64,000 nt of DNA. Origin: Saccharothrix obliqua. GTDB lineage: Bacteria; Actinomycetota; Actinomycetes; Mycobacteriales; Pseudonocardiaceae. The stretch spans positions 744,001-808,000 of the forward strand of contig NZ_JAHXGQ010000002.1 of the NCBI RefSeq assembly GCF_019375475.1, written 5' to 3'. Position numbers and translations under genes: made by a program. The notes under the pieces were generated by a model that ran no database searches, was not told the origin of the DNA, and was given only the letters and a program-made list of their open reading frames with translations. Of this stretch, positions 23,280 through 37,450 are shown in pieces (position 1 is the stretch's first letter; every line of letters begins with the position of its first letter).

Positions 23280-23651
23280 ATGAACGACCGCGGACCGTGG
23301 GCGGTGACGTGCCGGGATATCGCCGGCCGCCCTCGGAGTTTGACGGTGCTCGTGCGTGGCTCGGACGTCGTAGTGATGGCTCCTCCGGGTGAGGTGGCCA
23401 GGCTCGACGCCGCTGAGACCGAGCAGTTCCGCTCCGTGTTCGCCACGGCTGTCGAGGTGGCCGCCACCCCTGCCCCCGGTAGGACCGGCCTCTCCGAGGA
23501 GATCGGCACAGCGAGCACGGTGAAGCAGCACGGCGACGGCGGACCCCCGGCCGTCGCGGGACGCCCTGCTTCGCCGTCATGTCGCGGCGGAACCACGACC
23601 CCGATAGCTGGTTCCGCCGCGATCCCCGCCCTGCGAGGTGGGGTGGCGTGA
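23280..23651 (+). CDS. hypothetical protein
   Basis: A 123-residue frame from ATG 23280. The first ~65 residues look like a folded alpha-beta domain (WAVTCRDIAGRPRSLTVLV, VVVMAPPGEVARLDAAETEQ); the rest is Gly/Pro/Ala-rich and overlaps the next gene by 73 bases. Family not recognised. Its G/C bias in third positions is good in the first half only, so the C-terminus may be a poorly constrained tail. First gene of the plus-strand operon. Confidence 0.55.
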   Translation: MNDRGPWAVTCRDIAGRPRSLTVLVRGSDVVVMAPPGEVARLDAAETEQFRSVFATAVEVAATPAPGRTGLSEEIGTASTVKQHGDGGPPAVAGRPASPSCRGGTTTPIAGSAAIPALRGGVA

Positions 23652-23893
23652 TGTCGTTGGCTCTCGTCATCACGGCGATCGCCGCTGTGGTGTTCGTCAG
23701 TTGCCTGCGGTCGCGGGCCTTCCGGCGACGGCGCTCCGAGACCACCTCCGGCAGACACAGCCAGGCCGTGTCGTCCTACGTAGGCAGGCATTGGCGCGAG
23801 CCGAAGCAGCCACCGTCACCCGTGTTGTCGCACGCGCTGGCGACGGTCGGCACGCACGGCTTGGGCTTCATCAGGGAAAGCGAAGCCGCGTGA
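23579..23893 (+). CDS. small membrane protein, unknown
   Basis: 104 residues from ATG 23579, or 80 from ATG 23651. The second start shares bases with the upstream stop (TGATG) and has GAGGTGGGG before it; the first is supported by better codon bias in the overlap. There is one hydrophobic helix (VMSLALVITAIAAVVFVSCL) and then a basic, polar tail. Function unknown; it may be a membrane partner of the operon. Confidence 0.55.
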   Translation: MSRRNHDPDSWFRRDPRPARWGGVMSLALVITAIAAVVFVSCLRSRAFRRRRSETTSGRHSQAVSSYVGRHWREPKQPPSPVLSHALATVGTHGLGFIRESEAA

Positions 23894-24119
23894 GCCGTCT
23901 CGACAACCGGCCAACAACCGTGCGCTCCGCATCCGGTCGGCCGGCACAGGGTCAGGGCGGTGCCTGACGTCCCCCTGATTCTCGAACTCGCGCCGACCGT
24001 TGATCAGCGCGATCCGCGCGGCCATGAGTGCCGCGTCCTCGATCACGGCGGGGCCGGGTTTTCCCTTGAGGCGCGCCTCGGCTCCGCCGCACCAACCTCT
24101 GCACGACGGGAGCCTTTCC

Positions 24120-24602
24120 ATGACCACAGCAACCGCGACCGACCCCGAGCGGCACGACGACATCGAGCCGAGCGTGCTCCGGCGGTACTACACCAACCTG
24201 CTGAGCTGGCCGACAACGATCGACTCGCAAACCGGCGAAGTCCGTTTGTGCCTGGGCGAGACGGTCGACGCGCTGGTGATGCGGGCCGGGTTCGGCGGCG
24301 AGGTCAACCACGAACTCGTCCAGGCGATGATGCGCGCTCCGATCATCGTCGCGCCCGGCAAGAAGGCAGTCGACTGGGTCTTCCTGACCCAACCGCGCAC
24401 GCACATGCGCCAGTCGACCCTCGACGACCTCATGGCCGCCCAGATCGGTTGGTACAAGCCGGGCGACACGGTCGCGCTGCCCGCCTTCGGCGAGACCGAG
24501 GACGGCCTGCGCTGGTTGCAGCGCCCCGAGGCGGGCGAGGAACTTCCGAGCTGGGGAGCCGTTGTCGGCGCGGTTCGGCGCACCTTCACGCGAGCGTGGT
24601 GA
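24120..24602 (+). CDS. hypothetical protein preceding queC
   Basis: 160 residues. ATG 24120 follows GGGAG. Contains YYTNLLSWPTTIDSQTGEVR, MRAGFGGEVNHELVQAMMRA, VFLTQPRTHM and a C-terminal SWGAVVGAVRRTFTRAW. It resembles the small actinobacterial proteins annotated as prim-pol-like, but I see no catalytic DxD/His pattern, so the name would be a guess. It ends 6 bases before queC and is almost certainly co-transcribed. Confidence 0.6.
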   Translation: MTTATATDPERHDDIEPSVLRRYYTNLLSWPTTIDSQTGEVRLCLGETVDALVMRAGFGGEVNHELVQAMMRAPIIVAPGKKAVDWVFLTQPRTHMRQSTLDDLMAAQIGWYKPGDTVALPAFGETEDGLRWLQRPEAGEELPSWGAVVGAVRRTFTRAW

Positions 24603-24608
24603 CCGGCC

Positions 24609-25313
24609 ATGAAGATCGACTGCCTCGAGCACCGCCACCCCGAGCACGCGGTCGTCATCGCCTCCGGCGGCCTGGACTCCACCGTGCTGGCCTACTGGCT
24701 GGCCGCCCGCCACTGCCGACTGACGCTGGTCTCGTTCGACTACGGGCAGCGCCATCGCATCGAACTCGACCACGCCGCCGAGATCGCACGGCTGCTCTTG
24801 AGCCCGCATCGGATCATCGACCTGACGAGCCTGGGCGCACTGCTGACCGGTTCGGCGTTGACCGACACCTCGGTGGCGGTGCCCGACGGGCACTACACCG
24901 ACGAGTCGATGGCGGCCACGGTGGTGCCCAACCGCAACGCGATCATGCTCGACATCGCCGTGGCGGTCGCCATCGCCGTGCGCGCGGACGCGGTGGCCTT
25001 CGGCGCGCACGCGGGGGATCACACCATCTACCCCGATTGCCGGCCGGAGTTCGTGGAGCGGTTCGCCCGCAGCGTGCAGACAGCCAACGAAGGGCTGCTG
25101 GTGCCGGGGTTTCAGGTGCTCGCTCCCTTCCTGACGCTGACCAAGACCGACATCGTGCGCGTCGGCGAGGCACTTCAGGTGCCGTTCGCCCGCACGTGGT
25201 CCTGCTACCGAGGCCGGGCAGTGCACTGCGGCACCTGCGGAACGTGCACTGAACGCCAAGAAGCCTTCCGCGACAACGGCATGACCGACCCCACCGTGTA
25301 CAGGGCCACCTGA
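24609..25313 (+). CDS. queC: QueC-like 7-cyano-7-deazaguanine (preQ0) synthase
   Basis: 234 residues. The N-type ATP pyrophosphatase motif SGGLDST is at residues 19-25, then SFDYGQRHRIELDHA, VVPNRNAIML and FGAHAGDHTIYPDC, all conserved in QueC. Zinc ligands near the C-terminus are WSCYRG and HCGTCGTCTERQEAF. QueC converts 7-carboxy-7-deazaguanine to preQ0 using ATP and ammonia. QueD and QueE, the enzymes before it, are encoded on the minus strand 8-13 kb away. It is followed by a 200-base gap, the largest within the operon. Confidence 0.93.
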   Translation: MKIDCLEHRHPEHAVVIASGGLDSTVLAYWLAARHCRLTLVSFDYGQRHRIELDHAAEIARLLLSPHRIIDLTSLGALLTGSALTDTSVAVPDGHYTDESMAATVVPNRNAIMLDIAVAVAIAVRADAVAFGAHAGDHTIYPDCRPEFVERFARSVQTANEGLLVPGFQVLAPFLTLTKTDIVRVGEALQVPFARTWSCYRGRAVHCGTCGTCTERQEAFRDNGMTDPTVYRAT

Positions 25314-25513
25314 GGGGCGTGAAGATCATGGACGCGAAGCCTGCGAACCCTGGGCTTGAACGGGGCCGTCTTTCCTTCGTTCACAGCTCGCGTGTGTTGG
25401 GTTGCGAGCCTGTTCTCAGTGATCGAGGGAGCGTGCCTGCCGCTCAAGCTGGGCCCACCCTAGCGCACCCGCGTGCCGTGCCACCAACCCCTGCCCCGCA
25501 GGCGCACTCGCTG
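25314..25513 (+). other. 200-base non-coding gap, candidate structured RNA
   Basis: The frame stays open upstream of the RT-like gene from 25319, but third-position G/C over this stretch is only about 65 % against over 90 % downstream, so it is probably not coding. It can form short hairpins: AAGCC/GGCTT around 25337-25357 and GCTCGC/GCGAGC around 25385-25410. All other genes of the operon overlap or nearly touch. A leader or RNA partner of the RT-like protein, or simply a long 5' leader, would fit. No known RNA family is recognised. Confidence 0.35.
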
Positions 25514-26293
25514 ATGTCGTTGCTGGACGAGAAGCATCTGCGAACCGCGTTGCGGCAGTGCGGACGGCGCACCTCGGCTCCTGGTGCGGATCGGATGACG
25601 CTTGGGGAATTGCGTCGGCGTTCCGCCGAACTGCTGCCCCAGCTGGCCGCGCAGTTGGCCGAGGGCACTTGGCAGCCGGGCCCGGTGCGAGAGGTGTTGT
25701 TCCCGACTTACACCGGCAAGCCGATGACGGTGTGCGTGCCCACGATGATCGACCGGTTGGTACACCGCGCGCTGCGCAACGCGATCGAGCCGATCCTGGA
25801 GACGCAAGTGCTGGCAGACTGGGTGTCCGGCTACCGGCCTCGCCGCAACCGCATCACCGCGCTACGCCACGCCGCGGCTCACATCGCGGCCGGCTTGCGC
25901 GCGGTCGCCGACGTCGACGTCGCCTCGGTGTCCGAGAACGCCACGGTCGAGCAGGTCGTCGACTGGTGCGCCCAGCACATCCACGACGGCACCTTCCTCA
26001 ACCGGGTGCGCACCGCGCTGGCCGCGATGCCGTACCCGCTCGTGCCGGGTTCCGGACTCGCGCCGCTGCTGATCAACCTGCGCCTGTCCAATTCCGACGC
26101 CCTGCTGGGCGGGCTACGAGTGGTGCGGTTCGCCGACAACTACGCCGCCTTCGCCGCCGACGAGACCGAGGCCCACGCCGCCTTCACCGCCATCGCCGAG
26201 GCCCTCGCCCGATTCGGGTTGCGTCCCAATGAATCCAAGAGTCGCGTGCGGGCACGCGCCAACGTCGAAGACCTGTTCCTGATCGGGGGCTGA
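25514..26293 (+). CDS. reverse-transcriptase-like protein with altered active site
   Basis: 259 residues from ATG 25514 (an upstream start at 25319 is possible but has poor codon bias). Order of group II intron/retron-type RT blocks: APGADRMTLGEL (RT0), GTWQPGPVREVLFPTYTGKP (RT1), VPTMIDRLVHRALRNAIEPI and SGYRPRRNRITAL (RT2), ADVDVAS with Asp133 (RT3), GSGLAPLLINLRLSN (RT4) and FADN at 206-209 where YxDD is expected (RT5). The second Asp of YxDD is Asn and the usual GK-x-R of RT1 is GKPM. No maturase or endonuclease domain follows. It may be a repurposed or weakly active polymerase. It ends 5 bases before the C-lectin gene. Confidence 0.8.
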   Translation: MSLLDEKHLRTALRQCGRRTSAPGADRMTLGELRRRSAELLPQLAAQLAEGTWQPGPVREVLFPTYTGKPMTVCVPTMIDRLVHRALRNAIEPILETQVLADWVSGYRPRRNRITALRHAAAHIAAGLRAVADVDVASVSENATVEQVVDWCAQHIHDGTFLNRVRTALAAMPYPLVPGSGLAPLLINLRLSNSDALLGGLRVVRFADNYAAFAADETEAHAAFTAIAEALARFGLRPNESKSRVRARANVEDLFLIGG

Positions 26294-26298
26294 CCACC

Positions 26299-26856
26299 AT
26301 GCAGATCGAGTGGGTCGAGGTACCCGGCGGGACATGCCGGTTCGGCGACGACGCCCGGCCAGTAGAGATCCGCACGCTGCTGTGGACGCGCACCCCGATC
26401 ACCTACGCCCAGCTTCGCGGCGAGCGCGGTGGTGACAGCGGGCTGCACCCGGTCACCGGGATGACCCATGCCGAGGCCGCCGAGAGCGCCCGCGCCCTGG
26501 GCGGGCGGCTGCCGACCTCGGCGGAGTGGGAGTGGATGGCGGGCGGAACCGCCCGGCGACGCTGGCCGTGGGGCGACCAGGACTGGACACCCGAGTTGGC
26601 GAACCTGCGCGACCGCGGCCTCGACACCACCAGCCCGGTCGACGCCCACCCCGATGGGGCGACCCCGGAGGGACTACTGGACGTGGCGGGCAATGTGTGG
26701 GAGTGGACCGCCCGCGCCAGGATGGGCGGCGGCGTCACGCTGCGTGGCGGCTCCTACGCCTCGCCCGCGCTGTACGCGCGCACCACTTTCCTCAACGCCG
26801 CGCCCGCCGAGCTGGCCTCGCCGGGCATCGGGATGCGGGTGGTGCGCCAGCCGTGA
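26299..26856 (+). CDS. C-type-lectin/FGE-sulfatase-fold protein
   Basis: 185 residues with the FGE-sulfatase (SUMF1/EgtB) signature series: MTHAEAAESARALGGRLPTS, AEWEWMAGG, WPWGDQDW, GNVWEWT and RGGSY, ending GIGMRVVRQP. It has one Cys only (residue 13), so the formylglycine-generating cysteine pair is missing and it is likely a binding protein rather than an oxidase. The same fold serves as variable target in diversity-generating retroelements, which is notable directly after an RT-like gene. Its stop overlaps the next start (GTGA). Confidence 0.85.
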   Translation: MQIEWVEVPGGTCRFGDDARPVEIRTLLWTRTPITYAQLRGERGGDSGLHPVTGMTHAEAAESARALGGRLPTSAEWEWMAGGTARRRWPWGDQDWTPELANLRDRGLDTTSPVDAHPDGATPEGLLDVAGNVWEWTARARMGGGVTLRGGSYASPALYARTTFLNAAPAELASPGIGMRVVRQP

Positions 26857-27314
26857 CTCCCAGCAGCGGACTCGATCCCGAGCAGGGGCTGATCATCGTC
26901 TCCTGCAGTCGGGAGAAGCTGGTCACCACGACCCCGGTCCCGGCGCTGGAGCTGTACCAAGGCGCGCTCACGCCCCGCCTGCGCAACCACCTCTCAACCG
27001 AACACCGGGCACGGCTGCGCATCCTGTCCGGCGCGCACGGCCTGCTGCACCCCGACGACCTCGTGGGCACCTACGAGCGCAAGCTCCGCACCCGCGGCGA
27101 AGCGCAAGGGCTTCAGGCTCGCGTGTCCGAGCGCCTGACCACCGAGCTGCGGGACCAGGCGTTGCGGCACGTGTTGGTGGTGCTGGAGCCGCTGTACCTG
27201 ACCGCCGCCGAGTGCCTGTTCGACCACGCGCCGCCGCTGTCGCTGACGTTGCTACCCGACCCCGTGGACTGGGCTGGGACGAGCGCCGTGTTGTCCGGCT
27301 GGGGCTGGCTGTGA
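26853..27314 (+). CDS. YaaA/DUF6884-like protein
   Basis: 153 residues from GTG 26853 (4-base overlap). Features: IIVSCSREKL at the start, PALELYQGAL, RLRILSGAHGLLHPDD and GTYERKL, the CS-K-K / LY-G / LSA-HGL / YD series of DUF6884 and the related YaaA family. Such proteins are repeatedly found beside nucleobase or DNA modification genes; biochemical function is unsettled. The context with deazaguanine genes supports a role in base handling. It ends with a 4-base overlap with the GT2 gene. Confidence 0.65.
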   Translation: MTPSSGLDPEQGLIIVSCSREKLVTTTPVPALELYQGALTPRLRNHLSTEHRARLRILSGAHGLLHPDDLVGTYERKLRTRGEAQGLQARVSERLTTELRDQALRHVLVVLEPLYLTAAECLFDHAPPLSLTLLPDPVDWAGTSAVLSGWGWL

Positions 27315-28375
27315 CCACGTCCGAGTTCGCCCCCGGCCAGCTGCCACTGCGGGAGGAGTTGCTGCGGCACGGCAACAACCACAGCTCCACCACCCATACG
27401 TGGGAGGCCCTCGCCGACGGAGTCGGCTGGCACGAGCCCACCCCGTCGGACTGCCGGCTGGCGTCCGCACGCACCGTCTCGGTGGTCATTCCCGCCCACC
27501 AGGTCGGCTACTGCCTGCCCACCGTGCTCGACGCCCTGGACGCCCAACACCATCAGTACGAGTTCGAGGTCATCGTCGTCGACGACGCCAGCACCGACGA
27601 CACCGCCCACGTCGCCGCTCGGCACCGGGTGGTCGACCGGCTGGTGCGGTTGCCGCAGCGGATGGGCGCAGCCACCGCCCGCAACGTCGGCACCGCCCTC
27701 GCCAAAGGGCGAACCGTGCTCTACCTCGACGGCGACATGGTGATCCCGCCGCACGTGATCAACGACGTCGCCACTCGCGCCACCGACACCAGCGTGCTGG
27801 TCGGCTTCCGCCACAACCTGCGCTACGAGGTGCACTCGCAGGACGCGGCGATCCTGGGCCGCATCCCGAACCTCGCCGCCGACCACCGGGTCGTGTGGCG
27901 ACCACCGCCGGACGTCGTGCTGCCCTACAGCGGGATCACGCTGCCCGAACCGCTCGACGGCCGACCGCTGGACGACACCCACGACTTCATCGACCTCGGG
28001 TACGGGCAGTCCTACTACGACTGGGACCTGCCCCGCATGGTCGTCACCGCCCTGGTCGCCGTACCCCGCGCCGCCGTGCTGGACGTCGGCGGCTTCGACC
28101 CGGAGTTCGGCCGCCTCGGGTGGGGCATGGAGGACACCTACCTCGGCGCGTGCCTGATCGCCGCCGGGCTGCTGGTCATCCCGCTGCGCCAGGCCGTCGG
28201 GTTCCACCTCGACCCGCCCGACGCAGCTGAGCAGTGGCAGCACAAGCTCGCCGGCTGGCCGCACACGCTGGCCCGCTACCGCGAGCTGCTGGAGCTGCCC
28301 GCGCCGCGAGGCCGCACCCACGCCTTCATCTCATCCATGTCCGAGCTGCTCACCCACTGCGAGGGACGCCCATGA
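27311..28375 (+). CDS. family 2 glycosyltransferase
   Basis: 354 residues from GTG 27311 (GTGA overlap). GT-A fold: SVVIPAHQVGYCLPTVLDAL, VIVVDDASTDDTA, LDGDMVIPP as the DxD metal-binding region, and the C-terminal galactosyltransferase-like GFDPEFGRLGWGMEDTYLG. An ~50-residue N-terminal extension precedes the fold. Soluble, with no membrane helix. It would transfer a sugar from a nucleotide donor; the acceptor is unknown but may be the deazapurine product or a pathway intermediate. ATGA overlap with the radical SAM gene. Confidence 0.9.
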   Translation: MTTSEFAPGQLPLREELLRHGNNHSSTTHTWEALADGVGWHEPTPSDCRLASARTVSVVIPAHQVGYCLPTVLDALDAQHHQYEFEVIVVDDASTDDTAHVAARHRVVDRLVRLPQRMGAATARNVGTALAKGRTVLYLDGDMVIPPHVINDVATRATDTSVLVGFRHNLRYEVHSQDAAILGRIPNLAADHRVVWRPPPDVVLPYSGITLPEPLDGRPLDDTHDFIDLGYGQSYYDWDLPRMVVTALVAVPRAAVLDVGGFDPEFGRLGWGMEDTYLGACLIAAGLLVIPLRQAVGFHLDPPDAAEQWQHKLAGWPHTLARYRELLELPAPRGRTHAFISSMSELLTHCEGRP

Positions 28376-29349
28376 CCACGACAACCACGACCACAGGCCG
28401 AACCTCGGCGCGCCGGATGGTCGGTTCCGGCACGCGCGGCGGGACCGGTGTCGTCTACGACCCGCTCACCGGTCTGACCCACCGAACCGGCCAGCCGATC
28501 CTCACCGGACGCACCGCCCTGGCCCACGAGGGCATCACCTCGCTACCGGAAGTCCACCCCGGCGAGTTGGGCGACGTGATGCCGGTCAGCGTGTGCTGGT
28601 CGCCCATCGTGCGCTGCAACCTGGCCTGCCCGCAGTGCCTGGACGACAAGACAGTCCCGGAACTCGGCCGCGGCGAGCGCGCCGAGGTCGCCGCCAGGAT
28701 CGCCTCTTCCGGTGTACTCGGCGTGGACGTCTCCGGCGGCGAACCGCTGCTCATCCGCGACCTGCCCACCCTGCTCGACGTGCTGGTCGACGGCGGCTGC
28801 GCGGTCAGCGTCACCACCAACGGCACCCACCTGACCCGCCGCGCCGAAGCCCTCGCCCGCCGGGTCGACGCCATCCGGGTCAGCTTCGACGGCCCCGACC
28901 CCGAGCGGCACGACCGGTGGCGCGGCGAGGGCAGCTTCGCCAAAGCCGTCTCCGGCACCCGCGCCGCCCTCGCCCACGGCATCCCGACCCAGATCCAGAC
29001 CGTGCTCATGCGCTCCACCGCCGCCGGACTACCCGCGCTGGTCGAGCTGGCCGACCGTCTCGGCGTCCACGGCGTCACCGTCCTGCAGTACCTGCCCTTC
29101 GGCGAAGGCGCTCCCCTCGCCACCGCCGAACAAGTGCCCGACGAAGACGCCCGCCACCTGGTCGCCGCGCTCGGCACGACTCCGGTCCCGGTGCGGCTCC
29201 GCACCCGCGCCGACGCCGCCGGGTTCACCGTCGTGCGCGCCGACGGACAGGTCTGGCGCAACGCCCAGAACACCACCACCATCGCTGCCCTGCGCCCCCT
29301 GACCGGGCCGGTCAGCCTGGCCGTGACCGAACGGGACGGTTCAGCATGA
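28372..29349 (+). CDS. radical SAM enzyme
   Basis: 325 residues. [4Fe-4S] motif C82-x3-C86-x2-C89 in IVRCNLACPQCLDD, GGEPLL motif in DVSGGEPLLIRDL, TTNGT and VSFDGPDPERHDRW, as in MoaA/PqqE-like radical SAM proteins. No C-terminal SPASM cysteine cluster. The N-terminal ~65 residues (YDPLTGLTHRTGQPILTG) are an extension. The reaction is unknown; candidates are modification of the sugar, the deazapurine or a peptide. Distinct from QueE, which is encoded separately. ATGA overlaps on both sides. Confidence 0.88.
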   Translation: MTTTTTTTGRTSARRMVGSGTRGGTGVVYDPLTGLTHRTGQPILTGRTALAHEGITSLPEVHPGELGDVMPVSVCWSPIVRCNLACPQCLDDKTVPELGRGERAEVAARIASSGVLGVDVSGGEPLLIRDLPTLLDVLVDGGCAVSVTTNGTHLTRRAEALARRVDAIRVSFDGPDPERHDRWRGEGSFAKAVSGTRAALAHGIPTQIQTVLMRSTAAGLPALVELADRLGVHGVTVLQYLPFGEGAPLATAEQVPDEDARHLVAALGTTPVPVRLRTRADAAGFTVVRADGQVWRNAQNTTTIAALRPLTGPVSLAVTERDGSA

Positions 29350-29915
29350 ACCGCACCGCACAGCGCGTGTTCGAGCACCAGCGCATCTGGAGGGTCACCC
29401 CCGAGGCCCTGAGCGACGCCTGCCTGCTGCTGTTCGCCGCCATCAGCCGCGATCACCCGAAGGTCGACCACGTCATCGGCATCGCCAACGGCGGCGTCGC
29501 CCCCGCCCGCATCCTCGCCGGCCGACTCCGCGTGAAACCCAGGAGCGTCCACGCCCGGCACAACGCCGACGACGGCCTCTACCGGCAGGCCACCGGCAGG
29601 GTCACCGTCGACTTCGACGCCTTCTGCCGCGACCTCGGCCTCAGCCGCCGCAAGCTCGACGGCACCATCCTCGTGGTCGACGACATCTGCGGCAGCGGCG
29701 CCACCCTGCACAAACTCCGCAACCTCCTCACCCCGGTCCTCGCCCCGGACGCCCGCGTGATCACCGCGACGTTGTGCCTGAACACCGGGGCGCAGACCTG
29801 CCCGGACTACTCGGTGTGGACCGTGTCGGACTGGGTCAGCTTTCCCTGGGAGAAACGCCCCGATCAGCCGACCACCGACATACCCCTTCCGAAGCGGGCG
29901 ACCAGCCATGCCTGA
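29346..29915 (+). CDS. phosphoribosyltransferase-like protein
   Basis: 189 residues. The PRPP-binding loop VVDDICGSGAT is at 110-120, with upstream HVIGIANGGVAPARILAG as the conserved base-side loop of type I PRTases (xanthine/hypoxanthine PRT-like). The acidic pair before the loop is intact. By analogy with deazapurine antibiotic pathways, where a PRTase attaches preQ0 to ribose-5-phosphate, it could make a preQ0 ribonucleotide; this substrate is inference. Four-base overlap with the radical SAM gene, 8-base overlap with the next. Confidence 0.82.
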   Translation: MNRTAQRVFEHQRIWRVTPEALSDACLLLFAAISRDHPKVDHVIGIANGGVAPARILAGRLRVKPRSVHARHNADDGLYRQATGRVTVDFDAFCRDLGLSRRKLDGTILVVDDICGSGATLHKLRNLLTPVLAPDARVITATLCLNTGAQTCPDYSVWTVSDWVSFPWEKRPDQPTTDIPLPKRATSHA

Positions 29916-31044
29916 CGCCGGCAAACCGCTGACCATCGCGTTCGTCCTGGCCTCCTACACCCACGACGCCCCGGCCGGGATGGAACGCGCCACCGCCGCC
30001 CTCGCCCACGGTCTCCGCCGGCTCGGACACCGCGCCCTGATCATCACCGCCACCGAACCCGATCACGCCACCGATGAGGAGATGGACGGGGTGGTGCTCA
30101 GCTCGGTCGGGGTCACCTTCCCCGCCGACGACGATGAACTGCGCGAGGCGATCAGCACCCACGGCCAGGACGAGATCATCACCGCCGACCTGCGCGCCCT
30201 CTACCACCGCCACCGCGTCGACATCGCCGTCTACGTCGACGCCCTGTGGGGGCTGGGACGCCTTGCCCCAGAGTGCGACGGCGTACGCACGGTGCTCGCG
30301 ATGCACGTCGTCGGCCACGACCAGGACCTCGTGCCCGCACTGCAACGCGCCGAGTTGGTGGTCGCGCCGTCGACCACGGTTCTCGGACAAGCCCACGCCC
30401 GAGGCTACGACAGCACCTGCTGGCGAACCGTGCCCAACGCCCTGCTCGACGAGCACAACGCGCCCGACACCCGCCAGCGCGAGGCGTTACGGCAGGGCGG
30501 ACCCGTACGTGTGCTGGCCCGGCTCGGGCCGGAGAAGAACGTCCGCGCCCTGCTCGACGCAGGCCGCCTCGTCGACCGCGGCATCGAGGTCGTCCTCGCC
30601 GAAGCCGGGTTCGAGCACACCGCCGGCGCACAAGCCGCCGAGTACCGCCACTGCGCCCACTCCGCCGCCCACCTGCTCATGGGCAGCGTCCGCGACGACG
30701 GCCTGCCCTGGAACCAGGTTCAGCCGTGGCTCGCCAACGCCGCCGTGGTCATCGTGCCCTCGACCAAGGAGACCTTCGGCCTCATCGCCCTGGAGGCCAT
30801 GAGCGTCGGCACCCCGGTCGTCGCCTTCGACGTGGACAACCTTCCCACCCTCATCGGCACCGACGACGGAGCGGGCGGAATCGTGGTGCCCCGCGCCCAC
30901 GGCGAGTTCGGGCTCTGGGCTGCCGCCGAAGTCCTCCTCGACGATCCGGTACGCTACTCAGCGCTATCACGGGCTGCGTACTACCGCTCGCGGGACTATC
31001 TGCCCACCACAGTCGCCCATGACTTCCTCAAGGCGGTGCGGTGA
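29908..31044 (+). CDS. family 4-type (GT-B) glycosyltransferase
   Basis: 378 residues. N-terminal half: IAFVLASYTHDAPAGMERAT, then a Rossmann-like set. C-terminal donor-binding half: VRVLARLGPEKNVRALLDAG and the EX7E-type motif in KETFGLIALEAMSVGTPVV. Retaining GT-B enzyme, soluble. With the GT2 it gives the operon two sugar-transfer steps, which may build a disaccharide on the product. Overlaps its neighbours by 8 and 4 bases. Confidence 0.9.
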   Translation: MPDAGKPLTIAFVLASYTHDAPAGMERATAALAHGLRRLGHRALIITATEPDHATDEEMDGVVLSSVGVTFPADDDELREAISTHGQDEIITADLRALYHRHRVDIAVYVDALWGLGRLAPECDGVRTVLAMHVVGHDQDLVPALQRAELVVAPSTTVLGQAHARGYDSTCWRTVPNALLDEHNAPDTRQREALRQGGPVRVLARLGPEKNVRALLDAGRLVDRGIEVVLAEAGFEHTAGAQAAEYRHCAHSAAHLLMGSVRDDGLPWNQVQPWLANAAVVIVPSTKETFGLIALEAMSVGTPVVAFDVDNLPTLIGTDDGAGGIVVPRAHGEFGLWAAAEVLLDDPVRYSALSRAAYYRSRDYLPTTVAHDFLKAVR

Positions 31045-31898
31045 TGACCGATGTCCCACTTCTGCTGGTCGACGGCCACAACCTGCTCTGGCGCGGAGCC
31101 TTCGGCTTCCCCGCCGCGATCCACTCGCGCGACAAGACCCGCGATCTGACCGCCGAGTTCGCCTTCTTCGCGCTACTGCGAGTAGCCATACGCGAGGAGT
31201 TCACCTCCCCGCCGGAGGTGATCGTGGTATTCGACGGCCAGCACGGCGCTGCCGAACGCCAAGCCACCGACAGCGACTACAAGGCCAACCGCGGCCTCGA
31301 CGAGGCCGCGCTCAAACCCATCCGCGCCATCCCGCACGTCCAGCAAGCGCTGACCGCCTACGAGCTGGCGTGGATCGAGATCGACACGGCCGAAGCCGAC
31401 GACGTGATCGCCACCCTCGTCACCCACGTCCGCCGCGACGACCCCGAGCGCCGGGTGTGGATCATGTCCGGCGACCGCGACTTCTACCAGCTCATCGATG
31501 ACCGCGTCCGGGTGCTCAACACCACCATGAAGCGAGGCCGCCGCCACATCGAGCCCGACACCGTGTTCGACCGCTACCGAGTCCAGGCGGCCCAGTGGGC
31601 GGACTTCCGAGCCCTCACCGGCGACCCGGCCGACAACATCCCCGGCGTACGCGGCGTCGGGACGGGTACCGCCGCCAAGCTCCTGGCCGGCGGCCTCACC
31701 CTCGGTCAACTGGCCGACGCCGGGCGGCTCACCGGCGCCAAGGGCAAGGCCGTCGCCGAAGCCTGGGACCAGCTCCTCGACTGGCGCGACCTGATCAGGA
31801 TGCGCACCGACCTCGCCCTGCCCCTGCTGCCCACCGGCCACAGCAGCCGGCCCCTGCCCACGCCCGCCGAGGTCATCGACAAGCTTGGACTGTGGTGA
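31041..31898 (+). CDS. 5'-3' exonuclease (FEN/Pol I N-domain type)
   Basis: 285 residues from GTG 31041 (ATG 31044 is adjacent). The full acidic set of the FEN family is present: LLLVDGHNLLWRG, VIVVFDGQHG, SDYKANR, EADDVIATL, IMSGDRDFYQL, and the H3TH DNA-binding motif TGDPADNIPGVRGVGTGTAA. It is the size of stand-alone Pol I exonuclease domains, without a polymerase domain. Likely active on DNA or RNA flaps or 5' ends. A nuclease is unexpected in a nucleoside pathway and points to a nucleic-acid substrate. Overlaps both neighbours by 4 bases. Confidence 0.92.
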   Translation: MMTDVPLLLVDGHNLLWRGAFGFPAAIHSRDKTRDLTAEFAFFALLRVAIREEFTSPPEVIVVFDGQHGAAERQATDSDYKANRGLDEAALKPIRAIPHVQQALTAYELAWIEIDTAEADDVIATLVTHVRRDDPERRVWIMSGDRDFYQLIDDRVRVLNTTMKRGRRHIEPDTVFDRYRVQAAQWADFRALTGDPADNIPGVRGVGTGTAAKLLAGGLTLGQLADAGRLTGAKGKAVAEAWDQLLDWRDLIRMRTDLALPLLPTGHSSRPLPTPAEVIDKLGLW

Positions 31899-32533
31899 CG
31901 CCGGTGACCGCGACCGCGTTCATCCCGCCCGGCTCGGTCCTGACCGTGATGGCCCATCCCGACGACGCCGAACTCTGGGCAGGCGGCACGCTCGCCCTCT
32001 GCACCGCCGCCGGAGCCGACGTCACCATCGCCGTCCCACGCCACCCCGAGCCGCGTGCCAGTGAGGCCGCCGCAGGGGCCGCGGTACTCGGCGCGGGGCT
32101 TCACGAGATCAACGAGCCCACGGCGGCGGCCGTACGCGAACTGCTGCTGGACACCCGCCCCGAAGTCGTGCTCACCCACCCGCTACGCGATGTGCACCCC
32201 GACCACCGGCGCATCGCCGAAGCCGTGCTGGAAGCCCTTCCCGAGGTTGTCATCGCCACCGGAAAACCACGCCGGGTCTACGCCACCGACACCTACAACA
32301 GCCTCACCCTCGACGGCCCCGTTCCTGCGCACACCACCGTCGACATCACCACCACCTGGACCGCCAAGCAACGCGCCCTGACCGTGCACGCCTCCCAGCC
32401 CATCGCCGAACACTTCGGCCCGATGGCCGAGAACCTCGCCCGGCTGTGGGGCGCGCGCATCGGCGTCGACCACGCCGAGAACTTCGTCCCGCTGCCCGTA
32501 CTCGGACGCCTGCCCGCCGCGGTCACCCTCTGA
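31895..32533 (+). CDS. PIG-L family deacetylase
   Basis: 212 residues from GTG 31895 (GTGA overlap). Zinc motif AHPDDAELWAGGT near residue 16 and HPLRDVHPDHR near 95 are the two metal-binding signatures of the PIG-L/MshB family, which removes N-acetyl groups from GlcNAc-type sugars. With two glycosyltransferases in the operon it probably trims an N-acetylhexosamine added by one of them. Last gene of the plus-strand operon; 87 bases separate it from the convergent queD. Confidence 0.9.
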   Translation: MTPVTATAFIPPGSVLTVMAHPDDAELWAGGTLALCTAAGADVTIAVPRHPEPRASEAAAGAAVLGAGLHEINEPTAAAVRELLLDTRPEVVLTHPLRDVHPDHRRIAEAVLEALPEVVIATGKPRRVYATDTYNSLTLDGPVPAHTTVDITTTWTAKQRALTVHASQPIAEHFGPMAENLARLWGARIGVDHAENFVPLPVLGRLPAAVTL

Positions 32534-32620
32534 CCTTCGCGGACTTCCGCTGGCTTGATAGTGTCGAATGGGCACGTCAGGTCGGGCCTGCCGTGTTCGA
32601 CGGTCGGTGCCTGCGGTACT

Positions 32621-33106
32621 TCATCGCGGCACCGAGGGCTCGTAGACGGCGGCGTTGAGCCGGGTCTCGCGGACCAAGACCCGCTCGACCCTCGCGCCGT
32701 CAGCGCGAGGAAGCCCGGTCAAGACGCTCTCGGCGACCCGCCCCAGCAGGACCGCGACGGCCTCAACGGTGGGCCACGGCAGCCCGCGGGCGAACTGCTC
32801 GGCAACGTCCGCCGGGCGCTCAACCCCGAAGCAGAACACTCGACTGCCCTCCGCGGTCAGCGGCTCGATCAGCCGGTCGCACGCGCCGAGCATCGTGGCG
32901 TGGTCGAGGTGCTCGTCGATCCACCGCCGAAGCCCGACCTTGAGCGCGCCGAACTCCACCACGGTCACCTCGGGACTCAGCTCCGGGGCGGTCACCGTCA
33001 CTGAGGCAGACCAGGAGTGGCCGTGGAGGCTCACGCACTTGCCACCCAGGTGCGGCAGCCGGTGTCCGGACTCGAACGAGTGCTCGACGGTGATCTTGTG
33101 CGCCAT
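32621..33106 (-). CDS. queD: QueD-like 6-carboxytetrahydropterin synthase
   Basis: 161 residues. T-fold enzyme with zinc ligands His15 (FESGHRL), His28 and His30 (SLHGHSW), catalytic Cys24 (GGKCVS) and LDHATML, the conserved catalytic Asp/His region. It converts dihydroneopterin triphosphate to 6-carboxytetrahydropterin, the substrate of QueE. Convergent with the plus-strand operon. All residues needed for activity are seen. A second, fused QueD-like protein is encoded at 36761-37450. Confidence 0.92.
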   Translation of the reverse strand: MAHKITVEHSFESGHRLPHLGGKCVSLHGHSWSASVTVTAPELSPEVTVVEFGALKVGLRRWIDEHLDHATMLGACDRLIEPLTAEGSRVFCFGVERPADVAEQFARGLPWPTVEAVAVLLGRVAESVLTGLPRADGARVERVLVRETRLNAAVYEPSVPR

Positions 33107-33466
33107 CAGCGGACCACCGTGCTCGACCAGTCGATCGACAGGGGCGGTTGCGGCAGTATCACCTCGTGCATCTGCACCGAACCCAGCTCACTTCCCGCAA
33201 AGTCAGGCGTCCGTGATCGAGAACGGCCTGCGGTGACCGGTCGTCGGGTGGGCCATCGCAGGCCCGAGGCCAGTCAACGGGCTCGCCCACCGCGATCACC
33301 AGAGCGACCGTGCGGCGGCTGCGAGGCGTCCACGGGGCGGCACCCCGCCTGATCAGGGATTTGGGGTTTCCCTGGCGGGTGAGCACGCATGGGCCGACAC
33401 CGGCCGACGCTGCGGAAACGAACGAGTACCGTGCGCTATGGAGGGACCGGAGGAAAGGGACGCGCG

Positions 33467-34747
33467 ATGGTGGCACGGCTACTCACTCCGCTGGCCGCTG
33501 CTCGCGAAGCCGCCGGTTACACCCAGGAAAGTCTCGCCGTCACGCTGAAGGTTGAGCGCACCACCATCGGCAGATGGGAACGCGGCGTCCAATCGCCTCA
33601 GCCGTGGCAGCGACCCGGTCTCGCCCGAGCCCTGCAGGTCTCCCTGGACGAGTTGGACGTCCTGTTGCGCCGCACTGCCCGGCGCTCCAGCAAGCCCACC
33701 TCGGCTGCGGTCCTGGCCCCAGCACCGATCGGCGTTGAGCTGATCCCGCCGGCACCACCCACCAGCGACAGCCACGAGCGCGAACCCGTCGCCGAGGTCG
33801 ACGTCATCCACGCCGCGATCCCGCGCCTGCGCCGCGCCCTCGACCGACTGGACCTGCCCGACGACGGGCTCACCAGGACCCCGGCTGACCTTCACGGCGA
33901 CATCGCCCGCGCCAGCGACGACCGGTTGCAATCCCGCTACGGCAGCCTCGCCCGCCGCCTACCCGCCCTCATCACCGAACTCGCCCGTGCCCGTCAGCTC
34001 GGCGCCACCGCCGACCGTCGCCACGCCGCAGCCCTGCTCACCCTGGCGCTGCGCGCCGCCGACGGCGTGGCCTTCAAGTTCGGCTACCTGGACCTGTCCG
34101 CACGGCTGATCGACCTGATGCGCTCGGCCGCCCGGCTCGCCGAGGACCCACTGCTGCTTGCCGCGGTGGCGTACGTGCGCACCGAGAACTTCTTCGCCAG
34201 TGGAGACCTGGACGCTGCCATCCGCGCCCTCGAACTTGCCGCCGACCGCGTACCCGACCTCGACACTGCCTCGGCCTTGGCCGCCTTCGGCGCCTTGCAC
34301 ATGCGCGCGGCGGTCGTCGCGGGCCGGGCCGGCAAGCCCGATCGCGCCGCCGACCACCTGCGCGAAGCCCGCCGCGCCGCAACCGCCGTCCCCGAAGGCG
34401 TCTACCAGGGCACCGCGTTCGGCCCTGCCTCCCTCCGCATCCACGAACTGGCCGTCGCCGTCGAACTGCGCGATCCCCTGGGGATCGAACGGGCGGCGGC
34501 CTGGCACCCGCCCGACACCCTGCCCGCCGAACGTCGCTCCCACTACTTCATCGACCTCGCCCGCGCCCAGCTCACGCTCGGCCGTCACGAGGACGCCTAC
34601 CTGTGTCTGCAGGCCGCCCGCCAGGCCGCGCCCGAACACACCCGCACCCATCCCCAGGTCCGCCATTCGCTGTCGACCTTGCTGCGTACTCACAGCGCCC
34701 CGAGCACGGGACTGCTCGAACTCGCCGCCTGGGCCCGTGCTCGTTGA
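33467..34747 (+). CDS. XRE-family regulator with TPR-like C-terminus
   Basis: 426 residues from ATG 33467, after a strong GGAGGAAAGGGA site. The HTH spans about residues 8-60 (AREAAGYTQESLAVTLKVER, TTIGRWERGVQSPQPWQRP), followed by a Pro-rich linker and alpha-helical repeats (SARLIDLMRSAARLAEDPLL, LDAAIRALELAADRV). It is the actinobacterial XRE-TPR type seen four times in this window. Divergent from queD, with 360 bases between their starts, so it probably controls the deazaguanine genes; this is inferred from position. Confidence 0.85.
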   Translation: MVARLLTPLAAAREAAGYTQESLAVTLKVERTTIGRWERGVQSPQPWQRPGLARALQVSLDELDVLLRRTARRSSKPTSAAVLAPAPIGVELIPPAPPTSDSHEREPVAEVDVIHAAIPRLRRALDRLDLPDDGLTRTPADLHGDIARASDDRLQSRYGSLARRLPALITELARARQLGATADRRHAAALLTLALRAADGVAFKFGYLDLSARLIDLMRSAARLAEDPLLLAAVAYVRTENFFASGDLDAAIRALELAADRVPDLDTASALAAFGALHMRAAVVAGRAGKPDRAADHLREARRAATAVPEGVYQGTAFGPASLRIHELAVAVELRDPLGIERAAAWHPPDTLPAERRSHYFIDLARAQLTLGRHEDAYLCLQAARQAAPEHTRTHPQVRHSLSTLLRTHSAPSTGLLELAAWARAR

Positions 34748-34762
34748 TGCCCGACCGAACGC

Positions 34763-35407
34763 TTAGTGCGGAGCCAGCAGGTCGGGCAGGTCGTGCAGGG
34801 AGTCGATCACCCAATCGGCATCGCGACGCACCAGTGGATCGTCAGCCCAGAGGTACCCCCAGGGACCGCGCCGGATCAACGCCGTACGGAACCCCGCCGC
34901 CTTCGCCGCCACCACGTCGTTGTCCCGGTGGTCACCCACGTACACGGTCTCACCGGGTCCGTCGGGCACCATCTCCGCGACGCGCGCGAAGAACTCGAGC
35001 GAGGGCTTGGCGACACCCCACTCGCCCGAGGTCGCGACCTGGTCCACCGGCAGGCCCAGCGCACGCAGCAGCTCCGCCGCGCGGGAAGTCTGGTTCCCGG
35101 CCACCCCCACCCACAAGCCGAGCTCCCGCAGCCGCGCCAAGCCGGGCCGGACGTCGGGATAGAGGTCGCCGTCCTCGATGCGCTCACCCAGTCCGGCCTC
35201 TTCCCGTAGCCGCCGTTCGCGGGCGAGGTCGAAGCCCGGCTTGAAGTATTGGAACGTCTCGGCGTTGTCCCGTCCGGCAGCGGTGACCGCACCCAGCACG
35301 GTCGAGAAGGTATGACGTGGCACGCCGATCCAGTCGGCCCACGCACCCCACTCGCGCGAGTCGTCCAACAACGTCTCGCCCACGTCGAACACCACCGCGG
35401 TCACCAT
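34763..35407 (-). CDS. HAD-superfamily hydrolase
   Basis: 214 residues. Motif I DVGETLLDD near the N-terminus (nucleophile Asp, with Glu at the usual second Asp, a known variant), Asn/Ser region VAGNQTSRA, Lys in AKPSLEFF and motif IV VYVGDHRDNDVVAAKAAG. A cap domain lies between motifs I and II. Likely phosphatase or related hydrolase; it could remove phosphate from a deazapurine nucleotide. The start overlaps the stop of the upstream hypothetical by 7 bases. Confidence 0.88.
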   Translation of the reverse strand: MVTAVVFDVGETLLDDSREWGAWADWIGVPRHTFSTVLGAVTAAGRDNAETFQYFKPGFDLARERRLREEAGLGERIEDGDLYPDVRPGLARLRELGLWVGVAGNQTSRAAELLRALGLPVDQVATSGEWGVAKPSLEFFARVAEMVPDGPGETVYVGDHRDNDVVAAKAAGFRTALIRRGPWGYLWADDPLVRRDADWVIDSLHDLPDLLAPH

Positions 35408-35761
35408 GCTTCTACTCCTACGTCACCCACAAACGCCGCGCCACAGAGGGCCCTATGGCCTGCACAGCTGCTCGGAGGCGGCCGAACGTCGATCGCGCCC
35501 AACTCCCAGCGCACCTCGTCGCCGGATTCCAGTTGGCGGGCGGTGAGGTAGACCAGCGTGTCGCCGTCGACCAGCGCCATGCGCCACCATCCCCTTACTG
35601 GATCGCACACCTCGGGTGGGACGTCGGCGTGGATCTCGGTTCGGCACACGCGGGTCGGTCACAGTCAGGCGGAGCCAGAGTCCGTCATGAGATTCGGTCC
35701 TGCTGATCGTCGTTCCAGACCATGCGGTGACACGCGACTGGTCGAGCACCCCGCGCAGCAC
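35401..35761 (-). pseudogene. small hypothetical gene, frameshifted
   Basis: A C-terminal frame (TEIHADVPPEVCDPVRGWWR ... YLTARQLESGDEVRWELGAIDV) ends at 35401. The plausible N-terminus lies in another frame (GVLDQSRVTAWSGTTISRT, SHDGLWLRLTVTDPR); the two join at about 35655 if one base is restored. The GTG at 35761 is a possible start without a clear ribosome-binding site. Family not recognised; the product would be about 120 residues, beta-rich. Coupled to the HAD gene by overlap. Real decay or sequence error. Confidence 0.45.
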
Positions 35762-36059
35762 ATCGAGGTCTACGGGCTGACGCCCTCGCCTTGCTGGGTG
35801 CCGGTCTGTCGAGGGTGTTGGTCGCGGATTCCGCCTCGCTTCCGAATTTGATAAGTGGGTGAAGGACGTCAGTAGCGGAGGCTGGTGGTGAGCCCCGGCA
35901 CGCAAGCTCTGGGCAACCTGCCAACGCAGCGAGGGCGACTACGAGCATCAGGGCGGTCTCAGTCAGGCCCTGGGAACACGTGCCCCCAAGGGACGTCACC
36001 GAGGTTGTGGTGCTGGCACTGGGAAACGCCTGATTCAGTGCTCGGTCTGGGAGTCGGTG

Positions 36060-36764
36060 TCACCTCGCGCCGGTCAGGATGTGCAGGCGGGTGGAGACGT
36101 TCCACCCACGTTCAGTGGCCGGGCCGTAGAGCGCGTCCATGCCGGCCAGAACCTTCTCCTGGGTGGTGCCTTCCGGCATCACCCACACCGGAGCCAGCCG
36201 GTGCTCCTCGACGAGCTGGGCGATCTCGTCGAAGTCGCGGTCAGGCTCGCTGACCACGAACTTGAACACCGCGCGGTCCGTCGCAACCAACGCCGACAAG
36301 GAATCGGCCTTGATTCGGGTGGAGTAGGCCATGCCGGAGTTCGCAAGTTTTGGGCTCACCACCCAGAGATCGACCAAGGAGGCAAGTTCCGGTGTGGGCG
36401 CAATCGTGCCGTTGGTTTCGACCTGCACCCGAACATCCGGCAGGCCGCGGGCCAGTGCAGCCATGGCGGGCTGCTGCAACATCGGCTCCCCGCCGGTGAT
36501 CACCACCATGTCCACGCCGCGCTCAAGCACCCACGACACCAGCTCGGCGATAGGGACTCTGTCGCTGACGTCGGCCGGGTTGTATCTGCTCCAGTCCCAG
36601 CTCTCTGGGGTGTCGCAGTAGCCGCACCGGAGGTTGCACCGGGAGAACCGGACGAACACGCAGCGCTGCCCGGCCCACGGGCCTTCGCCCTGGAACGACT
36701 CGAACTTCTCCGTGAGAATTGCGGAACCCTCTACACGTCCGGGAGTCAAGGCCAGCGTGTTCAC
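36060..36764 (-). CDS. queE: QueE-like 7-carboxy-7-deazaguanine synthase
   Basis: 234 residues from GTG 36764 (4-base overlap with the upstream gene). Radical SAM motif C43-x3-C47-x2-C50 in SRCNLRCGYCDTPESW, substrate region FESFQGEGPWAGQRCVFVRF, VVITGGEPML and VQVETNGT, VVSPKLANSG; all match QueE. It converts 6-carboxytetrahydropterin to 7-carboxy-7-deazaguanine, the QueC substrate. With QueD and QueC the window holds every step from the pterin to preQ0; GTP cyclohydrolase would come from elsewhere. Confidence 0.95.
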   Translation of the reverse strand: MNTLALTPGRVEGSAILTEKFESFQGEGPWAGQRCVFVRFSRCNLRCGYCDTPESWDWSRYNPADVSDRVPIAELVSWVLERGVDMVVITGGEPMLQQPAMAALARGLPDVRVQVETNGTIAPTPELASLVDLWVVSPKLANSGMAYSTRIKADSLSALVATDRAVFKFVVSEPDRDFDEIAQLVEEHRLAPVWVMPEGTTQEKVLAGMDALYGPATERGWNVSTRLHILTGAR

Positions 36765-37450
36765 GAGGCATCGCCTCGCTCCCACAGACCGGTGGTCATC
36801 CCCGAGTCGACCCGTACGGATACGAGTCGGCCGCGGGTCTCCGGTTCGACGTTGTCGACGAACCATCCAGCCAGGTGGGCCACCAGCGCAGGGCCAGCAG
36901 CACGTAGCCCCGCGTCGGCGTCAGACGCCTGGAGGTATGTTTCGAACGGCTTCGAGTCGCCGAAATCGGTGATGAACCCAACCTTGTTGAGCCCGTCCGC
37001 CCTAAGAACCAGCGTGACGTCGCTGCGGCTGCTCTTGAAGGTCTTCGAGATCGTGACCTGGCTGGTGACGTCGTCACAGCGTGCTGACGTGGTCGCGGTC
37101 TCCGACACCACCATCTCGACCAGCGTGACCGACATCGCCGACTCAACGTTGTCCCGGAACCACCCGGCAAGGTGAGCAGCGAGAAGCTCGCTCGTCGGGT
37201 GGAAGGTGACCTGCTCGTTGAGCAACCGGTGGTCAAACGTCGCGGCCAGAAAGTCCCGGAGATGCGACAGATCACCGGGGGCGTCATCGTGCACGAGCGC
37301 CGAGGCGGTCACCGTGTAGTTGTGGCCGTGGTTGCGGCGACATTTATGACTGGCCGGCAACTGCATCAGCTCGTGGCTGGCACTGAAGCGGAACGACTGC
37401 GAGATGGTGATCTGGCCGTCCGCCATACACTTCTCCTCATTGGCCTTCAT
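36761..37450 (-). CDS. tandem QueD/PTPS-like fusion protein
   Basis: 229 residues from ATG 37450 (AAGGAGG site); ATG 37426 (GAGGAG site) is equally possible. The N-terminal domain is QueD-like with His26 (RFSASHELM), Cys37 and His41/His43 (KCRRNHGHNY) and FDHRLLN. After about residue 125 a second T-fold-like half (VTISKTFKSSRSDVTLVL ... LVAHLAGWFVDNVEPETRG) repeats the C-terminal pattern ELLAAHLAGWFRDNVES of the first half but lacks the zinc histidines. A catalytic domain fused to a degenerate copy is unusual for QueD. First gene of the queE unit; GTGA overlap. Confidence 0.8.
   Translation of the reverse strand: MKANEEKCMADGQITISQSFRFSASHELMQLPASHKCRRNHGHNYTVTASALVHDDAPGDLSHLRDFLAATFDHRLLNEQVTFHPTSELLAAHLAGWFRDNVESAMSVTLVEMVVSETATTSARCDDVTSQVTISKTFKSSRSDVTLVLRADGLNKVGFITDFGDSKPFETYLQASDADAGLRAAGPALVAHLAGWFVDNVEPETRGRLVSVRVDSGMTTGLWERGDAS

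What the first reader, a model, noticed from the sequence alone, without database searches (positions are those of the whole stretch)
23280..37450. Composite deazaguanine gene cluster with RT-like, nuclease and glycosylation functions
Seen: an operon (overlapping ATGA/GTGA junctions from 26853 to 32533) of QueC, RT-like, C-lectin-fold, YaaA/DUF6884-like, GT2, radical SAM, phosphoribosyltransferase, GT4, 5'-3' exonuclease and PIG-L genes, facing QueD, HAD, QueE and a tandem QueD. Known: QueD/E/C make preQ0; base- or DNA-modification and deazapurine-antibiotic pathways use some of these classes. Inference: no QueF, TGT or DpdA is visible, so preQ0 is diverted to a glycosylated deazapurine nucleoside, or to a base placed into nucleic acid. 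Neither pure antibiotic nor known DNA-modification clusters contain an RT-like plus FEN pair. I know of no described system with this set.
Basis: partly seen in the sequence, partly recalled or inferred. Interest (0 to 1): 0.93.

Follow-up and report, generated by a model that had tools for sequence, protein, structure and literature searches.

The report
Deazaguanine pathway with polymerase and RNA
A set of neighbouring genes kept together in many actinobacteria joins predicted genes for making the modified base 7-deazaguanine to a relative of reverse transcriptase and to a likely structured RNA, and the set is predicted to make a sugar-decorated nucleotide-like product, which would be an unexpected job for a reverse transcriptase.

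Summary
The cluster is real and conserved. In 32 of 32 named loci the core genes present lie in the same order: QueC, RT-like, FGE-fold, DUF6884, GT2, radical SAM, PRTase, GT4, 5' nuclease, PIG-L. Two loci of a second architecture reshuffle the order; one lacks QueC, the other a PRTase. The window's genome has no QueF or TGT match.

(1) The RT-like family is a group IIC-type RT domain without thumb. In 225 sequences the steric-gate position is always small (S/T/A/C), and the second Asp of YxDD is Asn in all 224 with a letter there. That predicts a ribonucleotide-using polymerase. (2) A ~115-nt element, not in Rfam at E<=1, has three helices with compensatory change (88.0% of cells paired versus 34.7-46.3% slid). 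It sits at the 5' end of the RT gene, or before the FGE gene in the second architecture, so it is separable from RT.

Best reading: a biosynthetic system, likely making a glycosylated 7-deazaguanine nucleotide with an RT-RNA particle. Product and activity are untested.

The parts
24609..25313 (+). QueC, 7-cyano-7-deazaguanine (preQ0) synthase
   Evidence: PF06508 5.5e-62; NCBIfam TIGR00364 188.6 bits over cut-off 150.3
25319..26293 (+). RT-like gene, full open frame (GTG 25319); RT domain 25514-26293; group IIC-type RT domain without thumb, motif C FADN, steric-gate position S140
   Evidence: PF00078; PDB 6ar1 8.5e-36; Foldseek 5hhl/6ar1 TM 0.81-0.82; residues
25351..25467 (+). Conserved, likely structured RNA element: P1 25354-25363/25440-25449, P2 25373-25383/25420-25430, P3 25386-25391/25404-25409, conserved 12-nt loop 25392-25403
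   Evidence: alignment, covariation, model hits; no Rfam match there
26299..26856 (+). FGE/SUMF-fold (C-lectin-like) protein
   Evidence: PF03781 5.5e-22
26853..27314 (+). DUF6884 protein (YaaA-like; same domain as DpdC of DNA-deazaguanine islands)
   Evidence: PF21818 3.6e-12; domain of dpdC per PMC11888242 passage
27311..28375 (+). GT2 glycosyltransferase
   Evidence: PF00535 1.1e-19
28372..29349 (+). Radical SAM enzyme, CxxxCxxC conserved
   Evidence: PF04055 1.2e-16; conserved RCNL.C..C
29346..29915 (+). Purine-type phosphoribosyltransferase, PRPP loop conserved
   Evidence: PF00156 4.4e-15; conserved VDDI.G.GaT; PDB GpT-2 1.8e-11
29908..31044 (+). GT4 glycosyltransferase
   Evidence: PF13692 1.4e-18
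31041..31898 (+). Stand-alone DNA polymerase I-type 5'-3' nuclease
   Evidence: PF02739 2.1e-32, PF01367 9.7e-16; Taq polymerase 5' domain 2.5e-30
31895..32533 (+). PIG-L family sugar deacetylase
   Evidence: PF02585 3.9e-13; HPDDAE conserved
32621..33106 (-). QueD (6-carboxytetrahydropterin synthase family)
   Evidence: PF01242 4e-22
34763..35407 (-). HAD-family phosphatase; hit in 2 of 32 named loci
   Evidence: PF00702 4.9e-15
36060..36704 (-). QueE-like radical SAM (7-carboxy-7-deazaguanine synthase)
   Evidence: PF04055 3e-11; aligns with a gene between QueC and RT in 11 of 32 named loci
36761..37420 (-). Second QueD, with two QueD-like stretches
   Evidence: PF01242 1.8e-19; two stretches align with one QueD

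Best explanation
This is a conserved actinobacterial gene cluster that likely makes a 7-deazaguanine base (preQ0 or its precursor CDG), likely turns it into a ribonucleotide, and is predicted to build and sugar-decorate a nucleotide product with the help of a reverse-transcriptase-derived polymerase and a likely structured RNA encoded in the same operon. Shown here: the gene set and order, their conservation, the fixed changes in the RT active site, the covariation of the RNA, and its separability from RT. Inferred from family: (FolE)/QueD/QueE make CDG and QueC, where present, preQ0; the PRTase joins the base to PRPP, as TubE does with CDG; DUF6884, the DpdC domain, turns nitrile to amide; GT4 plus PIG-L (and GT2, DegT, Gfo/Idh or WbqC in variants) add an amino sugar; the 5' nuclease trims or releases the product. 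Inferred from residues: with no steric gate and Asp-Asn in motif C the RT-like enzyme adds ribonucleotides, using the RNA element as template, primer or holder. This last step is the least certain.
For: Synteny: same order in 32 of 32 named loci; each core gene hit in 30-32 of 32; misses: L060 lacks QueC (contig edge), L038 GT2, L061 rSAM/PRT/GT4, L044 EXO/PIG-L, L059 GT4/EXO/PIG-L (contig edge). RT distances track the other nine proteins, r 0.82-0.91 over 24 taxa, as shared descent would give. Co-occurrence in 149 relatives: 30 have some RT match, 7 a full-length family member; DUF6884 is in these 7 plus relic G019, PRT in 6 of the 7 plus one weak hit. RT: D135 225 of 225, small residue at the gate 225 of 225, Asn209 224 of 224 with a letter; of 20 other RTs from relatives (20 of 22 loci aligned) 18 have F or Y at the gate and 17 of the 18 with a letter have Asp at 209. 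Fold is group IIC RT. RNA: 88.0% of cells paired versus 34.7-46.3% slid, 17 of 27 pairs with two-sided change; 7 of 7 cluster loci not used to build the model gave full-length hits; 0 of 5 loci of unrelated RTs did. In the second architecture the RNA lies before FGE, 1.7 kb from RT. FolE in L052, L053, L056 of the 32 and in L103, L088, L099. No QueF or TGT in the own genome.
Against: No product, transcript or activity has been seen. Asn for the second Asp could also mean a weak or dead polymerase. No kinase to make a triphosphate and no transporter or resistance gene is among the ten core proteins. The second-architecture genome G624 has no QueC match, so there no nitrile is expected and the DUF6884 step is doubtful; the Embleya record has no PRTase match (its chromosome is not in that record). 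The RNA lies in an open, probably translated frame, unusual for a free RNA. One of five covariation measures, the number of pair types, does not exceed the shuffles (262 and 214 of 500 as high). Single-sequence folds are only modestly stable (z -2.22 window, -2.56, -0.35, -2.07, +0.43). The structure was drawn on the window's own sequence, which favours it over slid controls. Only 2 loci of the second architecture were read.
Confidence: 0.36

Rival explanations
1. A conventional deazapurine nucleoside antibiotic cluster in which the RT-like protein is a catalytically dead RNA-binding protein and the RNA is a cis-acting control element (attenuator or riboswitch-like, sensing a deazaguanine intermediate) that divides the base-making genes from the tailoring genes.
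For: In both architectures the RNA lies between base-making genes and the part with RT, FGE, GT4 and nuclease; its frame is open into the next gene, RT in 36 of 36 sequences and FGE in 2 of 2; motif C carries Asn; PRTase and sugar genes fit a nucleoside.
Against: The two metal-binding Asp (225 and 224 of 225 rows, one row gapped) and the motif D Lys (220, 4 gaps, 1 Thr) are conserved, unlikely for a dead enzyme. A regulator does not explain the 5' nuclease. Regulatory RNAs rarely lie inside a translated frame (recalled).
Confidence: 0.28
2. A nucleic-acid modification or phage-defence system: deazaguanine nucleotides are put into DNA or RNA by the RT-like polymerase working with the 5' nuclease, like a split Pol I doing nick translation, then glycosylated.
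For: RT plus Pol I-type 5' nuclease as a pair; DUF6884 is the DpdC domain of DNA-deazaguanine islands; patchy distribution, a full-length family member in 7 of 149 relatives, and decaying copies G019, G052.
Against: No TGT/DpdA in the own genome, no restriction protein among the ten core proteins; the best PADLOC hit is a generic RT model, DRT/UG models are weaker (DUF6884 and radical SAM give weak PDC-M57A and viperin hits); sugar-building genes vary as in natural-product clusters.
Confidence: 0.24
3. A diversity-generating retroelement or retron that happens to lie in a deazaguanine cluster, the FGE-fold protein being its variable target.
For: RT next to an FGE/C-lectin-fold protein, with an upstream RNA.
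Against: No RT of 225 has the DGR motif [ILV]GxxxSQ; NAxxH is in 1 of 225 and VTG (last 60 residues) in 1 of 225. I saw no template/variable repeat pair among the 20 direct-repeat families shown (of at least 60). The RT travels with nine biosynthetic genes.
Confidence: 0.03

Closest known systems
Toyocamycin/tubercidin/huimycin-type deazapurine clusters
   Same: FolE-QueD-QueE(-QueC) steps to CDG or preQ0; PRPP-dependent PRTase acting on CDG (TubE, tubercidin); glycosyltransferase adding GlcNAc (HuiG, huimycin) (PMC6112128, PMC12648386, PMC7439116: passages)
   Different: No RT, structured RNA, 5' nuclease, DUF6884, FGE-fold or PIG-L gene is named for tubA-I or huiA-G in the passages I saw; I did not see a full toy gene list
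Group IIC intron reverse transcriptase (GsI-IIC RT, 6ar1)
   Same: RT fold and motifs
   Different: No thumb/maturase part, no intron RNA found in the Rfam search, YADD changed to FADN, steric-gate Phe changed to Ser/Thr
Retron and DRT systems (RT with partner RNA)
   Same: RT with a conserved RNA in the same operon, at its 5' side
   Different: Retron motifs absent in 224 of 225 each; RNA not in Rfam; partners are biosynthetic enzymes; best PADLOC hit is a generic RT model
dpd islands (7-deazaguanine in DNA)
   Same: preQ0 genes and the DUF6884 (DpdC) domain
   Different: No TGT/DpdA in the own genome; no dpd restriction protein among the ten core proteins

Membership tests
Deazapurine nucleoside clusters (toy/tub/hui kind) | CDG/preQ0 genes QueD and QueE (with or without QueC) together with tailoring genes | tested here: met
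   QueE between QueC and RT in 11 of 32 named loci; QueC missing in G624
Deazapurine nucleoside clusters (toy/tub/hui kind) | Produces a free deazapurine nucleoside | not testable with these tools
   needs LC-MS of culture extracts
dpd DNA-modification islands | DpdA (TGT family) that inserts preQ0 into DNA | tested here: not met
   PF01702 0 of 1 own genome, control 14 of 14; relatives' genomes not searched for it
dpd DNA-modification islands | DUF6884 domain protein (DpdC) | tested here: met
   PF21818 3.6e-12; link to dpdC from PMC11888242 passage
Queuosine tRNA pathway | QueF and TGT | tested here: not met
   0 of 1 each in the own genome
Group II intron | Intron RNA (domain V etc.) around the RT | tested here: not met
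   only one chance miRNA hit (E 0.83, inside QueC) over 24500-33200
Group II intron | RT of group II type with maturase domain | tested here: not met
   RT domain matches but the protein ends with it; NCBIfam maturase model 120.5 bits against cut-off 300
Retron | NAxxH and VTG motifs in RT | tested here: not met
   1 and 1 of 225 sequences
Retron | msDNA from the upstream RNA | not testable with these tools
   needs nucleic-acid extraction
Diversity-generating retroelement | [ILV]GxxxSQ motif in RT | tested here: not met
   0 of 225
Diversity-generating retroelement | TR/VR repeat pair | tested here: inconclusive
   none among the 20 families shown of at least 60
DRT/UG defence RTs | Best match to a DRT/UG model | tested here: not met
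   best hit is a generic RT model (3.3e-37); best UG model RT_UG22 8.3e-10
RNA-dependent RNA polymerase | No aromatic steric gate, two metal-binding Asp kept (sequence hallmark only) | tested here: met
RNA-dependent RNA polymerase | Polymerises ribonucleotides on RNA | not testable with these tools
   needs purified protein

The most novel reading that the evidence does not exclude
A bacterial reverse transcriptase has become an RNA-using ribonucleotide polymerase inside a biosynthetic pathway: with a dedicated structured RNA as template or holder it adds 7-deazaguanine nucleotides, other cluster enzymes glycosylate them, and the 5' nuclease frees the finished product. That would be a natural product made on a nucleic-acid scaffold.
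Probability: 0.22. Interest if true: 0.98.

Novelty: categorically new. Interest (0 to 1): 0.9.

Why it matters
It links three things I know of only apart: deazaguanine chemistry, a reverse transcriptase, and a structured RNA. If the polymerase uses ribonucleotides it would be a cellular RNA polymerase newly derived from an RT, with an active site that resembles some viral RNA polymerases (recalled). If the RNA is a scaffold, it would open a new logic of natural-product synthesis. The system is compact and occurs in strains held in culture collections (record titles), so the product, the RNA and the polymerase are each directly testable.

Tried and rejected
DGR: RT motif tested and not met, repeats inconclusive. 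Retron: motifs absent in 224 of 225. Group II intron: no intron RNA. RNA as a mere conserved leader peptide: codon-position entropy in the element is nearly flat (0.63/0.70/0.82) against 0.60/0.47/1.16 in the RT gene of 20 loci plus the window, and changes follow base pairs; but the mild third-position excess and the open frame (36 of 36) suggest that it is also translated. RNA without RT: G052 looked like a case but is a relic with a broken QueC. RNA as RT's own translational operator only: weakened by the second architecture. RT-only hit G784 (35%) has no cluster gene and no RNA in the 19.9 kb read. Phage or plasmid origin: one IMG/VR contig with the cluster, one plasmid record (Embleya). 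Whole phylum: 1 of 396 sampled genomes, the window's own, at E 1e-40. Hyphobacterium (recalled as an alphaproteobacterial genus) encodes a member, P0222; I could not fetch its neighbourhood.

Rows dropped before counts: P0225 (group II intron RT) from the 225; proteins P0226-P0257 were found later and not counted; one search scored 256 hits but lists 120, which are the ones used; L058-L060 left out (broken or edge RT), 11 of 17 sources matched, the misses being the five unrelated RT loci and L060, whose contig begins inside RT. The RT gene seems frameshifted in L057-L059 by the match lengths. Of the 10 genomes hit I read 5: four hold the cluster (L099, L101, L102, L103), one (L100) does not.
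Full report
1. What is there. The + strand operon runs QueC, RT-like, FGE-fold, DUF6884, GT2, radical SAM, PRTase, GT4, 5' nuclease, PIG-L; from the FGE gene on, stops and starts overlap. QueD, HAD, QueE and a second QueD face it. The window lies in an 8.04 Mb genome; by its closest RT hit (94%, Lentzea atacamensis) it is probably a Lentzea-like actinobacterium (inference).

2. It is a system. With the RT family profile I fetched 32 named loci from genera such as Actinokineospora, Amycolatopsis, Sciscionella, Saccharopolyspora, Thermomonospora, Spongiactinospora, Kitasatospora, Micromonospora, Nocardiopsis and Streptomyces. The core genes that are present lie in the window's order in 32 of 32. 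Hits per gene: QueC 31, RT 32, FGE 32, DUF6884 32, GT2 31, rSAM 31, PRT 31, GT4 30, nuclease 30, PIG-L 30 of 32; L059 and L060 end at contig edges, L038, L044 and L061 have real gaps. In 11 of 32 loci QueE lies between QueC and RT, with QueD beside it. DegT aminotransferase is hit in 12 of 32, Gfo/Idh oxidoreductase in 11 and GTP cyclohydrolase I in 3 (families from Pfam). In 149 related genomes a full-length RT family member occurs in 7; DUF6884 occurs in these 7 and relic G019, the PRTase in 6 of the 7 plus one weak hit. QueC is commoner, 23 of 149. The cluster is patchy and decays: G019 and G052 hold relics.

3. A second architecture. L088 has QueC in front but no PRTase match in its whole 5.7 Mb record; L099 has the PRTase but G624 has no QueC match anywhere (100% complete by the tool). 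The RT of L088 is 43% identical to the window's. What both architectures share is QueD, QueE, DUF6884, PIG-L, FGE, GT4, RT, nuclease and the RNA; QueC and PRTase are each missing once; GT2 and radical SAM are replaceable. Four of five genomes read hold the cluster: L099 in the second architecture, L101, L102 and L103 in the first.

4. The RT-like protein. Its model (pLDDT 87.9) matches group IIC intron RTs but stops after the RT domain. In 225 family sequences (224 found proteins plus the window; P0225 left out) D135 is invariant, position 140 is S 148, T 71, A 5, C 1, and position 209 is N in all 224 with a letter. In the alignment to GsI-IIC RT position 140 faces the second Phe of DLEKFF, which I recall as the steric gate; 18 of 20 other RTs from relatives have F or Y there. 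A Y-family polymerase without an aromatic gate is naturally adept at ribonucleotide incorporation (PMC4176160, start of abstract). Asp-Asn in motif C is found in some viral RNA polymerases (recalled). The inference, untested, is a ribonucleotide-using polymerase.

5. The RNA. Upstream of 25514 the DNA is conserved base by base. Three helices fit: P1, P2, P3. On 30 MAFFT-aligned sequences 87.6% of cells pair against 34.4-45.9% when slid, with 101 two-sided changes; on 37 model-aligned sequences 88.0% against 34.7-46.3% (this alignment leans towards the structure). The number of pair types does not exceed the shuffles in either. The 7 loci not used for the model all give full-length hits, the two of the second architecture at 71.6 and 63.2 bits. 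Five loci of unrelated RTs give none, nor does G784. Rfam has no such family at E<=1 (one chance hit inside QueC, 0.83). Among relatives 7 of 99 genomes have exactly one copy each, two of them relics. The reading frame through the element is open into RT (36 of 36, some of them the same genome twice) and into FGE in the second architecture (2 of 2), so it is probably translated as well. Single-sequence folding energies are not striking in 2 of 5 tested.

6. How it may work. QueD and QueE make CDG and QueC makes preQ0 (established for the families). TubE of tubercidin joins CDG to PRPP (PMC6112128, passages), so the PRTase here likely makes a deazaguanine ribonucleotide; using CDG would also fit the genome without QueC. 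DUF6884 is the domain of DpdC (PMC11888242, passage), whose role in making the amide I recall. GT4 plus PIG-L resemble the mycothiol and bacillithiol pair that adds and deacetylates GlcNAc (NCBIfam hits well below cut-off). The RT-like enzyme with the RNA would then add or template nucleotides, and the nuclease would trim. Steps to the base are likely; the nucleotide step is plausible; the RT-RNA step is the boldest.

7. What is known. The listings of nine searches of the held papers showed no paper on such a set; the library lacks most subscription journals, and a main review on deazaguanines was not held. The huimycin list and the tubercidin genes named in passages contain no RT, nuclease, DUF6884 or PIG-L. 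The 2014 RT survey (PMC4244168, passages) lists groups, but the passages I saw name none like this. I therefore rate it categorically new, with the caveat that absence from these searches is not proof.

Noticed in passing
window 614-1570 and 1984-3480: Two CRISPR-like arrays with repeats of about 28 nt every 60 bases; the stretches before both arrays are near-copies (558-637 and 1928-2007, 88%), like a duplicated leader.
   Followed up: partly
G000:C46:27467-28156: The same genome holds a second, 38% identical QueC-like gene on another contig.
   Followed up: no
L088:17147-17650: A nucleoside 2-deoxyribosyltransferase-family gene (PF05014) follows the nuclease in the Embleya variant, where no PRTase was found.
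   Followed up: partly
L071, L070: Decayed copies: one keeps QueC, QueD and QueE but has RT and FGE deleted into each other, the other keeps only a broken QueC, the RNA and the RT start.
   Followed up: yes
P0222: A family member annotated in Hyphobacterium suggests the RT family may reach beyond actinobacteria.
   Followed up: partly
window 23280-23651 and 24120-24602: Two small genes upstream are hit in 13 and 19 of 32 named loci; of the 19, 14 lie within 57 bases of QueC and 5 lie 4.6-6.7 kb away, so they may be accessory.
   Followed up: partly
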